From Strix aluco (Eukaryota > Chordata > Aves > Strigiformes > Strigidae): a stretch of DNA of 64,000 nucleotides. The notes beneath the pieces are model-generated. The model had not been told where the DNA came from and made no database searches. It saw nothing but the letters and a program-made list of their open reading frames with translations. The stretch lies in contig NC_133957.1 of assembly GCF_031877795.1 (NCBI RefSeq), positions 7,059,009 through 7,123,008 on the forward strand, written 5' to 3'. Shown piece by piece: positions 16,701-64,000 of this stretch (its first letter is position 1; each line of letters starts with the position of its first letter). The translations under genes and the position numbers were made by a program.

Positions 16701-19700
16701 GCTGTGGGGATGGAGGATCCCTGGAAAGACGCCAGCCCTCTGGTAGGGTGTCTGGCCCTGCCTGGCTGGATCGCGTGCAGTGTGGGGAGAGAAACAGCTC
16801 CTTCTGGCAGTGTCCCTCCACTCCCTGGAACCCACAGTCATGCCAAGACCTGCAAGAGGAGACCAACATCACCTGCAATGGTAACTCTGATCCTCCCGGG
16901 TACTCATGTCACTCCAGATTCTGCTCCGCATTGGCCATAGCCAAGCACAGATAAAGAGCTTGGAGGGGCTTTTCCTTTCCATGTCAGACCCTTCTGCTGC
17001 CAGTGGCACAAACATGATCACGGCCACACACGTCCAGCAGCAGTTGCAACCCAGGTTGCCAGCAGCGCCTGGGGGAGGCAGAGGCATCTCCAGGTGAGGT
17101 CTCAGAAGAGACCAGACAGGTTTCAGAAGAGCCTTCCTTCCACAGACAAGCTACTGCTGCGCTGTGAACCAGGGAGCTCTTGGGGCTGAGCACTCGGGGT
17201 CCCCCCACAGTCCTGTGCGTGTCCCCTGGATGACTGCAGTTCAGTTGCTGCCATAACCAAGATGGTACAGGGAAGCACCAGCAGAGCTCAGCCCCTCTCT
17301 CGTCTGCATGATCCCCCAAACCAGCCCCTTCACCACAATGTTTCCTTCTTCAGGGGGACGCCCAGAAATGCCCCTGACCCCGTTGGCCCCGTGCCCCAAC
17401 TCCACGAGCTGCACAGGTAAGGATTTGCCGCTCTGTGTCTGGCAGGGCTCTGCCTGTTGTCCTGGTGCCATGGGAGGTCTTTGCCTTCTCCAGCCAGGGA
17501 GAAGATTCGTGCTGTGGGCGGTGAGGACGGGTGCTCGGGCAGAGTGGAGGTCTGGCACCGTGGCTCCTGGGGGACGGTGTGTGACAACTCCTGGGACATG
17601 CAGGATGCCGATGTAGCATGCAGGCAGCTGGGCTGTGGCCGTGCAGTGTCTGCCTTGCGTGAGGCTGCATTTGGGATGGGGATGGGCCCCATCTGGCTGG
17701 AACAGGTGGAGTGCCAGGGGACGGAGCCGTCCCTGCAGGACTGCTGGGCCCGGCCTGGGGACGGCGGTGCTTGCTTGCATAAGGAAGATGCTGCCGTGCG
17801 CTGCTCAGGTGAGTGACAGGGCTGGAACCCCTTGGTCAGGCATTGGCAGGGAGATGGGGAAGACCTTCAGTGCACGAGGTCTTGACATGGCCCCCGACAT
17901 CTCATGAGCAAGAATGTTCCTGCAGAGTGCAGGAGGCTGGTGCCAGGCAGGGAGCAGCCTCGTTGAACTGGATGTCCTTTGGCCACTACCCGTGGGGCCC
18001 TGCAGACCCAGGGCTATCGCCAGGCTGCCTGTGCCATCCTGCCTGCTTCCCAGAGCAGAGGTTCTGGGCCCAGGCCTGGCTTCTCTTTCGGGCAGTGAAG
18101 GAGGGGCAATTTCTGTTGGATGTGTCAGGGACATCTACAGACACCCCCATGGTGTGCTGGGGAGGAGGGTCCCCGCTCCCCGCATACCCAGTGTCTCAGC
18201 CCTGCTCTCTTTTTCCTCCTCTGCAGCTACACCCAGGATGGCAACATCCCCATCCCAAGCAGGTAAGTTGTCCTCCCCCTGGGGCTGGGTATCCCCAGGG
18301 ACAGGCTGTGACTCACAGATGGATGGAAGGGGCTCCTTGCTGGGGTGTGAAAGTCTCTGGAGGAGGCACTGGAGTGGTGGGAGGGTGTGAGGGAGAGTTG
18401 TCATTTCTTCAGCAGGGTGGAAGCTTCCCCACACTCACTCCTGGGGCCATCCAGCCTCTGCTGCCTTGTGTGATGGGGTCAGGACTGGTGCTGCCTCCAC
18501 CTCTCCCAGGCCTGGTTGCTGCCCCTTCCATTTTCTCTCCCCTGCAGTTCCCACCCGAGGCCGTCAGACCAGCAGCGGAAGAGTCTCAGTGCCCGTCATC
18601 ATCTGCATCATCCTGGGGGCCCTTCTCTGCCTGCTCCTGGCCCTCTTGGCTGGGCAAGTGCTGAGCACCAGGGCTGCGCGCAGAGGTGGGTCCTTCCCCA
18701 GAGGTCACAGGGGGAGATACCTCCTGGAAGGACGGTGTGGTGCTGCAGGGGGGTGTCAGCGAGGGTCGTCAGTGAGAGGCACAGACAGAGGTGGGGGGAT
18801 GAGACAGTATGCTGCCACCTTCACATGTGCTGCCCCACTGAGTGCCTGTCTGTGGGCCACCAGCAGCAAGGACTGGAGAGAGCCCAGAGGTGGGAGGAGC
18901 TAGCGATGGGGCGAGGAGGGAAATGGCAGAGTGGGGACGGCCAAGGCTGGCAGTGCTCTAGGTAATGCTGGAGAGGGCTCTGGGGCAAGGGAGATGCTAG
19001 GAGGAGTGCGGGGCAGCAGGGTCCATCACCGTGGTGTCAGGTCCCAAGACTGTCCCTCTGCCCAAGCCTGCCCACCCCCAGGACAGGGGCCCTACTATGG
19101 ACCCATGGGGCAGACAGGCACAAGCTCCAGGTGCAGAGGAAGTGTGGGATCTGCTCCAGGGTGAGATAAGGGGGGCATGATCCAGGGGCCAGAGGGGCAT
19201 GAGCGCAGTCTTCAAAGGGATGATGCGACGGTGACGCTGCCCCAGAGGATCTCCACAGCGATGTTGCCCTCAGGTGGGATGTGGCAGCAGTGCCTGGGCA
19301 GCACAGTGGGGCTGTGCTGTCACAGCAGTCCTGGGTGGGTGCAAGGATCTAGTTTGGGGGAGCACAGTGTGATCCCATTGCCCCTCTGCCTGTCCCTGTG
19401 CCAGCCCTGCTTCTGTCCCCAGGCTCCAGGAGAGCTCAGGAGCCCTTCCTTGAGGCTGTGTATGAGGAGATTGGTTACAGCCCAGCTTTGGAGAAGCAGG
19501 CCAGGTTTGGTCACTCAGGTGGGTGTGGGTCCTCCCTGGAGGCACATCTGCAGGACCCTTTCCCCTGGCGCCAACCCAGAGCTGATCCCCTGATGCGCCC
19601 CCAGTCCATGGTCCCTCTGGTGCTTGGAGCATGGGGTCTGTGGGGAGAGCATCCAGGTCCTGGGCCCAAGAGAGAAGCTTTCCACCAGTCACCCCTGACT

Positions 19701-62249: not shown

Positions 62250-64000
62250 CTGCAAGCAGCAAGGGCGGACATTTCAGTTCACTTCTTGGTTGCTGTACCC
62301 CACCATCCTCCCTGCTCCTCACCACATTCAGCTCCTTCTCCCACCTCCAGGCCTTTCAAGGAAAACTCCTGGGGCAGGTTCCCCCTTCCCAGGAGGTTTG
62401 GGCCTCAGTACAGTAGTGACTTGGGGGGGACCAGGGATGGCACCCTAGGGACAGGCAGCACTGTCTTTCCCTCTCACCTCTGGGTGCATCCCTGGGGCCT
62501 GCTCCCTCCTCTGGCATCCTGGGCATTTCCCACTCTCCCTCCCCCGGATCAGAAACCTCTCTGGCATCATCGTAGCCATCTTCTGGGTGATCTCTGGGCA
62601 GGACAAGGACATCTGAAAGGAGAGGGGAGCTGGTGACAGTGAGAAGATACGTCCTGCGGAGCAGAGGACAGGAGGGTGCGCAGGGACACAGGGCTGAGTC
62701 ACTGGGCTTGCCAGCACCACAGGAGATGCCCATGTCCTCCCCATCTCCAATGGTGACACTCAGTGACTCCTCTGTCCATCACATGTCTGCAGGGAGATCA
62801 ACCCCTTCCTGCCTCCGTTACCTGGTGCTGATCCCAGACCATCCTCCTCCTCGCTGACCCCAGGGTAGGGCTGTAGCTGGGTCAGGGACTGCTCTGAAGA
62901 GGAGCCTGGAGAGCAGCACAGCGGGTGTTATGGAGCAAGCCCCACTGACCTGGCTCATGGTCAGGGCTACTGGGGAAGGGAGACCCACAGAGCTGGGGCT
63001 GCATGGGGAGGAGGGCTGGGAATTCACCCTGCTCCCCCAGCACAAACCCTGTCCCAAATTTGCTCCAGAGTTGCCCTAGGACAGCCCCTTCCCTCACTCC
63101 TCGGGTGCCACATGGGGTGCAGGGGCAGGAATAAAGGGGCTGTCCAGCTGGGACAGTCAGAGATGACTGGTAGAAAGCTTCTCTCTTGGGCCCAGGACCT
63201 GGATGCTCTCCCCACAGACCCCATGCTCCAAGCACCAGAGGGACCCTGGACTGGGAGGGCTTCAGGGGATCAGCTCTGGGTTGGGGCTAGGGGAAAGGGT
63301 CCTGCAGATGTGCCTCCAGGGAGTACCCACACCCACCTGAGTGACCAAACCTGGCCTGCTTCTCCAAAGCTGAGTTGTAACCAATCTCCTCATACAAAGC
63401 CTCAAGGAAGGGCTCCTGAGCTCTCCTGGAGCCTGGGGACAGAAGCAGGGCTGGCACAGGGACAGGCAGAGGGGCCATGGGATCACACTGTGATCCCCCA
63501 AACCAGTGCCATGGGCCAGCCCAGGACTGCTCTGAGAGCACAGCCCCACTGTGCTGCCCAGGCACGGCTGCCACATCCCCCGTGAGGGCAACATCGCTGT
63601 GGAGATCCTCTGGGGCAGCGTCACCCTCGCATCATCCCTTTGAAGACAGTGCTCATGCCCCTCTGGCCCCTGGATCATGCCCCACTTATCTCACCCTGGA
63701 GCAGATCCCACACTTCCTCTGCACCTGGAGCTTGCCCCTGTCTGCCCCATGGGTCCATAGTAGGGCCCCTGTCCTGGGGGTGGGCAGGCATGGGCTGAGG
63801 GACAGGCTTGGGGCCTGACACCACGGTGATGGACCCTGCTGCCCCGCACTCCTCCTAGCATCTCCCTTGCCCCAGAGCCCTCTCCAGCACTACCTAGAGC
63901 ACTGCCAGTCTTGGCCATCCCCACTCTGCCATATCTCTCCTCGCCCCATCACTAGCTCCCCCCACCTCTGGGTTCTCTCCAGCCCTTGCTGCTCGTGGCC
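62101..64000 (-). CDS. Second SRCR-family receptor gene, 3' end only
   Basis: Four tail exons on the - strand: 63337-63432 (YEEIGYNSALEKQ), 62822-62905, 62478-62612 (GYDDAREVS) and 62101-62249 (GYDDAEEVS, stop TAG at 62101-62103). Their lengths (96, 84, 135, 149) equal those of the first gene, with all splice sites kept and frames open. The transmembrane and SRCR exons would lie beyond position 64000. The gene points toward the first one (convergent), so both 3' ends face the ERV-rich spacer. Whether the outer exons exist cannot be seen here. Confidence 0.8.
62478..62612 (-). CDS. Second SRCR gene, tail exon with GYDDA
   Basis: 135 nt, acceptor CTTTCAG, donor GTGAGA. Translation closely follows exon 16 of the first gene. 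Confidence 0.8.
62822..62905 (-). CDS. Second SRCR gene, acidic tail exon
   Basis: 84 nt, acceptor CTCTCCAG, donor GTAACG. It reads PYPGVSEEEDGLG where the first gene has [13 protein letters not shown]. Confidence 0.8.
63337..63432 (-). CDS. Second SRCR gene, YEEI exon
   Basis: 96 nt. It keeps YEEI; the residues around it are EALYEEIGYNSAL against [13 protein letters not shown] in the first gene. Confidence 0.8.

What the first reader, a model, noticed from the sequence alone, without database searches (positions are those of the whole stretch)
18855..64000. Large inverted duplication with two convergent SRCR receptor genes around an ERV-filled spacer
18855-23867 and 58969-64000 are reverse complements over about 5 kb, to the window edge, separated by about 35 kb. 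The arms include the 3' ends of two scavenger-receptor genes pointing at each other. Long inverted repeats promote gene conversion and inversion, which may keep the intracellular tails alike while outer domains diverge. Matching tail exons have equal lengths and intact frames.
Basis: partly seen in the sequence, partly recalled or inferred. Interest (0 to 1): 0.75.

Follow-up and report, generated by a model that had tools for sequence, protein, structure and literature searches.

The report
Inverted pair of owl immune-receptor genes
In what is most likely an owl genome, two copies of a WC1-like scavenger-receptor gene point at each other across a stretch partly made of old retroviruses; the parts seen here diverge as ordinary duplicates do, with no sign that the tails are specially kept alike.

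Summary
The inverted repeat is real and lies where reported: 18855-23867 against 58969-64000, 263 mismatches in 5003 aligned bases (94.7%), 10 indels, 35.1 kb apart; the window edge cuts it, so 5 kb is a minimum. Gene A (+) is a nine-SRCR WC1-like receptor, about 1165 aa; of gene B (-) only four tail exons are visible, equal in length, frames open. The nearest protein is from the tawny owl Strix aluco (10 differences in 1165). Tail-directed gene conversion between the arms is not supported: noncoding divergence around the tail exons matches that downstream (5.07% vs 5.56%, p=0.61), tail dS (0.047) is near noncoding divergence (5.5%), and only coding sequence is slower, as purifying selection predicts. 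In 61 bird proteins tails cluster by species about as often as most SRCR domains, though more than the outermost. Best reading: an ordinary inverted segmental duplication in a multigene family, with nested retroviruses in the spacer. Side points: one provirus lacks a target-site duplication and its flanks look discontinuous; arm differences are clumped.

The parts
18855..23867 (+). Arm A of the inverted repeat: part of the intron before the tail, four tail exons, 3'UTR and about 2.9 kb downstream of gene A
   Evidence: Self-BLAST; alignment
58969..64000 (-). Arm B, inverted copy of arm A, cut by the window edge
7679..20753 (+). Gene A: WC1/CD163c-alpha-like receptor from signal peptide to stop, nine SRCR domains, transmembrane segment, tail
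   Evidence: Open spliced frame; 96% local identity over 100% of query to P0001 Strix aluco; 10 differences in 1165 aligned residues
7679..7745 (+). Gene A signal-peptide exon
8715..9029 (+). SRCR 1 exon
10482..10790 (+). SRCR 2 exon
12075..12389 (+). SRCR 3 exon (duplicate of SRCR 1)
14054..14362 (+). SRCR 4 exon (duplicate of SRCR 2)
14592..14906 (+). SRCR 5 exon
15488..15808 (+). SRCR 6 exon
15895..16209 (+). SRCR 7 exon
16566..16880 (+). SRCR 8 exon
17354..17416 (+). Interdomain exon used in P0001 (ends approximate)
17494..17808 (+). SRCR 9 exon, membrane-proximal; best PDB relatives are CD163 (M130)
18226..18261 (+). Short interdomain exon used in P0001
18548..18685 (+). Transmembrane exon of gene A
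19423..19518 (+). Gene A tail exon 1 (YEEI motif)
19950..20033 (+). Gene A tail exon 2
20242..20376 (+). Gene A tail exon 3 (identical in B)
20605..20753 (+). Gene A tail exon 4 with stop; ATTAAA at 20959-20964
63337..63432 (-). Gene B tail exon 1
62822..62905 (-). Gene B tail exon 2
62478..62612 (-). Gene B tail exon 3
62101..62249 (-). Gene B tail exon 4 with stop; ATTAAA at 61885-61890
44897..57752 (-). Provirus ERV1: LTRs 44897-45492 and 57167-57752 (20 of 586 sites differ), integrase with MLV-type C-terminus; no target-site duplication found
48114..54508 (+). Provirus ERV2 nested in ERV1: LTRs differ at 2 of 604 sites, target-site duplication GCCAA, RVT_1/RNase_H/rve
57753..58923 (+). Fragments of other ERVs (integrase C-terminus-like by weak DNA similarity; transmembrane-env-like and LTR-like end by eye), ending about 45 bp before arm B
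30475..31081 (+). Solo LTR of the ERV2 family (18 of 604 sites differ from an ERV2 LTR), target-site duplication ATTGA
27206..29708 (-). LINE (CR1-like by recall) fragments, with a 1.13 kb head-to-tail duplication at 92.7% identity
   Evidence: RVT_1 in 28806-29708

Best explanation
The window comes most likely from an owl of or near genus Strix. It carries part of a multi-copy family of WC1-like (CD163c-alpha/WC1) membrane receptors. At least the 3' part of one member and about 2.9 kb downstream exist as an inverted second copy, so two members converge on a 35 kb spacer. The arms have 5.5% noncoding divergence, roughly 9-15 million years at recalled bird rates of 1.9-3e-9 per site per year. 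Retroviruses lie in the spacer: ERV1, with the much younger ERV2 inside it. Shown: the duplication, gene A's open reading through all its exons, the open tail exons of gene B, lower divergence in coding than noncoding sequence, nested ERVs. Inferred: that gene B has an ectodomain, that both genes are expressed and signal through the tail YEEI motif as WC1 does, and that the copies evolve as ordinary duplicates under purifying selection rather than being held together by arm-to-arm conversion.
For: Inverted repeat statistics. Gene A exon model with open frame, matched by Strix aluco P0001. CD163 structures as best PDB relatives of SRCR 9. Tails of both copies: YEEI and GYDDA motifs, no coding indel, dN 0.020, dS 0.047. 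Noncoding divergence alike in tail block and downstream block. Sequence downstream of the gene inside the arm also follows SRCR domains in predicted proteins of Strix uralensis (P0171) and Athene noctua (P0002), so it appears to travel with the gene. Multi-copy WC1-like genes are reported in chicken (at least 18 CD163-family genes, PMC2906472 passages; nine SRCR genes assigned to chromosome 16 and linked to MHC-Y, PMC4988538 passages); bovine WC1 genes lie on both strands (PMC2681482 table passage).
Against: Gene B's ectodomain is unseen, so it could be a truncated copy. No listed protein other than P0001 had a tail above 80% identity to A or B, though 90% clustering and length limits could hide B. 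Arm differences are more clumped than random, which plain point mutation does not explain. The outermost SRCR domain clusters less by species than the tail in birds (17 against 26 of 33). The assembly could not be checked against reads or another genome (own-genome search unanswered).
Confidence: 0.78

Rival explanations
1. Arm-to-arm gene conversion keeps the tails of A and B alike while outer domains diverge.
For: Inverted repeats can do this in general (recalled). Tail exon 3 is identical within a 189 bp identical run, unusual under uniform placement (p=0.01). Between the window and Strix aluco P0001, 8 of 10 differences fall in SRCR 1-4 (416 of 1165 residues; Fisher p=0.005) and none in transmembrane plus tail. 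In birds, same-species nearest neighbours are more frequent for tails (26/33) than for SRCR 1 (17/33). PMC2906472 suggests conversion in this multigene family (passage).
Against: No extra identity in noncoding sequence of the tail block (p=0.61), and the identical run is not unusual once coding constraint and clumping are modelled (p=0.23). Same-species clustering is as high or higher for SR8 (28/33), and within/between divergence is lowest for SR9, not the tail (0.28 against 0.41). Arms are only 94.7% identical.
Confidence: 0.14
2. ERV-mediated ectopic recombination produced the inverted arrangement: ERV1 sits at a rearrangement junction.
For: ERV1 has LTRs with TG...CA ends but no 4-6 bp target-site duplication, whereas ERV2 and the solo LTR have 5 bp ones. 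Its right flank begins in ERV-like sequence and no related sequence was found on the left flank, within this window. Mismatched duplications imply post-insertion rearrangement or conversion (PMC6407205 passage).
Against: A later deletion at one flank gives the same picture. The arm-B boundary is about 1.2 kb from ERV1, beyond other ERV pieces. ERV1's LTRs (3.4%) look younger than the arms (5.3%).
Confidence: 0.2
3. Assembly artefact: fold-back or misjoined contig.
For: Repeated gene families are often misassembled (recalled); in the bovine WC1 annotation two models of one gene in opposite orientation with identical flanks were read as an assembly anomaly (PMC2681482 passage).
Against: The arms differ at 263 of 5003 bases and by 10 indels, so they are not the same molecule read twice. 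A misjoin of two true paralogues is not excluded.
Confidence: 0.08

Closest known systems
WC1 / CD163c-alpha-like group B SRCR multigene family of birds and artiodactyls (PMC2906472, PMC2681482)
   Same: Repeated single-exon SRCR domains, transmembrane exon, several short tail exons, Y-(Q/E)-(D/C/E)-(I/L) tail motif; in cattle, copies on both strands
   Different: This copy has nine SRCR domains with an internal duplication of the first two; owl locus; convergent pair around ERVs
Clustered tandem or inverted segmental duplications, with WC1 blocks among the bovine ones (PMC2796684 passages)
   Same: More than 1 kb, more than 90% identity, same contig, immune genes
   Different: One pair seen, in a bird; full extent unknown
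Conversion-maintained large palindromes (recalled, such as those of sex chromosomes)
   Same: Inverted arms with genes
   Different: Here 94.7% rather than near-perfect identity, and a 35 kb spacer

Membership tests
WC1/CD163c-alpha-like receptor | Several group B SRCR domains, each on one exon | tested here: met
   Nine exons of 309-321 bp with splice sites; SRCR Pfam domains precomputed for the near-identical P0001; CD163 best in PDB. The eight-cysteine pattern was not counted domain by domain.
WC1/CD163c-alpha-like receptor | Tail motif Y-(Q/E)-(D/C/E)-(I/L) | tested here: met
   YEEI in both A and B; motif definition from PMC2906472 passage
[quoted passage not shown]
   Needs expression and biochemical data
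Segmental duplication | At least 1 kb at 90% identity or more | tested here: met
   5 kb at 94.7%
Conversion-maintained inverted repeat | Tracts of excess identity between the arms | tested here: not met
   Tail block no more alike than downstream block; longest run not in excess under constraint. Divergence does vary: 4.6% at 20986-23000, 7.9% at 23001-23867.
Conversion-maintained inverted repeat | Arms within a species closer to each other than to their orthologues in relatives | not testable with these tools
   No owl DNA collection at hand; B's orthologue not found as protein
ERV-mediated rearrangement | Provirus with intact LTR ends but mismatched target-site duplication | tested here: met
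   ERV1
ERV-mediated rearrangement | Reciprocal product or alternative flank joined elsewhere in the genome | not testable with these tools
   Own-genome search not answered

The most novel reading that the evidence does not exclude
The locus is part of an exchange network: recombination between ERV copies set gene A and gene B in opposite orientation, and since then short patches from third, more diverged SRCR copies have been pasted into the arms. That would account for clumped differences such as 8 within 16 bp (19336-19351) and 7 within 17 bp (23614-23630) in otherwise 95% identical DNA.
Probability: 0.15. Interest if true: 0.45.

Novelty: new member of a known kind. Interest (0 to 1): 0.22.

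Why it matters
It adds an owl example to the WC1-like receptor family, with a full gene and an oppositely oriented partner close enough in age for per-exon comparison. It shows that similar tails in such a pair need no gene conversion: coding constraint is enough for what is seen here. The provirus without a matched target duplication gives a concrete junction at which ERV-driven rearrangement of an immune-gene cluster could be tested with existing owl assemblies.

Tried and rejected
Conversion between arms: tested by block divergence, dS against noncoding, longest-run and dispersion tests; not supported. The over-dispersion of noncoding differences (index 1.7-2.3) disappears when differences within 5 bp are merged (p 0.25-0.56), so it is local clumping, not long tracts. 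The clumping is itself beyond random (a largest cluster of 8, p=0.008; 167 clusters against a mean of 189, p=0.0004); two neighbouring clusters (22111-22118, 22124-22127) lie in a tandem repeat and are probably slippage. One search counted 182 merged noncoding events and one search counted 167 because the merging rules differ.

Simple ERV insertion into arm B as the cause of its inner end: rejected, because no continuation of arm A's flank (23868-25300) was found on the far side of the ERVs within the window. Chicken as host: first guess from the literature, dropped when the owl protein matched. Olfactory-receptor or other host genes in the spacer: no Pfam hit in the 10 ORFs given, of 30 of at least 100 aa in 31.1-44.9 kb. 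No tRNA and no Rfam match at gathering scores. A Fisher test used 649 instead of 749 residues by my error; one search repeats it with the right number (p=0.005).

first gave tail 26, SR9 24, SR8 26, SR7 23 of 33; one search realigned the 61 and added outer domains (figures in the report). In one search's unmatched sets the tail stood higher (26/33) than the SRCR domains (27 to 36 of 51), but the sets differ. SRCR domains were taken as the best BLAST match, so some may not be orthologous, SR1 above all. Database entries are 90% clusters, so very close paralogues are hidden.

Literature searches: (inverted repeat, gene conversion, palindrome, bird, endogenous retrovirus together) found no paper. 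Papers were seen as listings, starts of abstracts and passages only; none was read whole.
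Full report
Observation. Self-comparison gives one dominant inverted pair, 18855-23867 against 64000-58969. A global alignment has 5003 aligned bases, 263 mismatches (162 transitions, 101 transversions) and 10 indels. The middle stretch is 35,101 bp. The match ends at the last base of the window, so the true arm length is unknown and 5 kb is a minimum.

Genes. Splice-aware scanning finds nine SRCR exons between 8715 and 17808; with a signal exon at 7679-7745, a transmembrane exon at 18548-18685 and four tail exons at 19423-20753 they read open for about 1165 residues. 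The deposited Strix aluco protein P0001 has the same order plus two short interdomain stretches, encoded near 17354-17416 and at 18226-18261. It differs from gene A's model at 10 of 1165 aligned residues: 8 in SRCR 1-4, one each in SRCR 7 and 9, none in transmembrane plus tail. Next by identity come Bubo scandiacus P0005 (88% over 99%) and Strix occidentalis P0013 (88% over 87%) among the 120 listed of 4868 hits. The window is therefore most likely from an owl of or near genus Strix; the species is not settled. SRCR 9 matches CD163 structures best in the PDB. Gene B, on the minus strand, shows four tail exons of equal length with open frame. Both tails carry YEEI, which fits the motif that PMC2906472 gives for WC1 and CD163c-alpha relatives (passage). 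ATTAAA signals lie at 20959-20964 and 61885-61890.

Divergence. Coding tail: 12 of 463 bases differ, 6 amino-acid changes, NG86 dN 0.020 and dS 0.047; noncoding: 251 of 4539, 5.53%. Coding is slower (p=0.006), but noncoding sequence within the tail block (44/867) is no slower than that downstream of the gene (160/2878; p=0.61). The inner end is more diverged (68/857, 7.9%) and 20986-23000 less (92/2015, 4.6%). The longest identical run, 189 bp, covers tail exon 3; uniform placement would rarely give it (p=0.01), but 23% of simulations that keep coding rate and clumping do. So purifying selection on the tail explains what was seen; arm-to-arm conversion aimed at the tail is not needed. Conversion acting evenly over the whole arm cannot be excluded without outgroup DNA.

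Birds at large. Among 61 bird proteins with tail and membrane-near domains, 33 belong to 12 species with at least two entries. The nearest neighbour is from the same species for 26 tails, 28 SR8, 23 SR9, 23 SR7, 21 SR6, 23 SR5, 23 SR2 and 17 SR1 domains; within-species divergence relative to between-species divergence is 0.41 for the tail, 0.28 for SR9, 0.43-0.61 for SR2 and SR5-8, 0.72 for SR1. Within-species similarity is therefore widespread, from recent duplication, conversion or both; it is not special to the tail, but weakest in the outermost domain, which fits the idea of diversifying outer domains. Two distinct tail types occur in owls, and Strix and Bubo each hold both, so the two types have stayed apart.

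The unit that was duplicated. About 2.9 kb downstream of the gene belongs to the arm. Pieces of that stretch appear, mistakenly or not, as exons after SRCR domains in predicted proteins of Strix uralensis (P0171, up to the equivalents of 23831 and 59005) and Athene noctua (P0002, 22189-22323). This downstream DNA therefore seems to travel with the receptor gene in owls, and the pair here is one case of that family's spread.

Spacer. ERV1 (minus, 44897-57752) holds ERV2 (plus, 48114-54508). ERV2's LTRs differ at 2 of 604 sites and it has a 5 bp target duplication; ERV1's LTRs differ at 20 of 586 and no duplication of 4-6 bp was found. To its right, ERV-like sequence runs to about 45 bp before arm B (integrase-like by weak DNA similarity; the rest by eye); to its left, 43800-44896 matched nothing else in the window. 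Either a rearrangement or a flank deletion followed insertion; PMC6407205 reads mismatched duplications as post-insertion conversion or rearrangement (passage). With recalled rates the arms date to about 9-15 million years, ERV1's LTRs to 6-9, ERV2's to under 1. A recent LTR expansion is reported for the Ural owl (PMC12455985 passages).

Clumped differences. In noncoding arm DNA, 45 of 167 difference clusters hold more than one site, with runs such as 8 in 16 bp; random placement gives a cluster of 8 or more in under 1% of trials. At 23032-23068 a translated comparison shows arm B mostly agreeing with the Strix uralensis paralogue P0171 and arm A the odd one, except at one residue where A agrees. 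Short patches from third copies, or multi-base mutation, could cause this; neither was tested directly.

Verdict.

Noticed in passing
7670-14461: The first two SRCR domains of gene A were duplicated in tandem with the leader: the SRCR 1/3 regions are 85.7% and the SRCR 2/4 regions 92.7% alike in DNA, with a decayed second signal exon near 10990-11060 and a broken SRCR piece at 13708-13830.
   Followed up: partly
44897-57752: Provirus with intact LTR ends but no target-site duplication and apparently discontinuous flanks.
   Followed up: partly
19336-19351, 20178-20185, 23053-23068, 23614-23630: Dense clusters of differences between otherwise 95% identical arms.
   Followed up: partly
27209-29462: A LINE piece of 1.13 kb duplicated head to tail at 92.7% identity; a related piece lies at 4529-5415.
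   Followed up: no
5409-6670: Degenerate minisatellite-like repeats with units of about 54-65 bp upstream of gene A.
   Followed up: no
282-833: Retroviral integrase C-terminal frame (IN_DBD_C) near the left window edge, similar to the end of P0171 (62.8% over 43 residues).
   Followed up: no
P0171 (Strix uralensis protein): Predicted protein fusing SRCR domains, a tail piece, arm-like downstream sequence and retroviral domains, probably an annotation chimera.
   Followed up: partly
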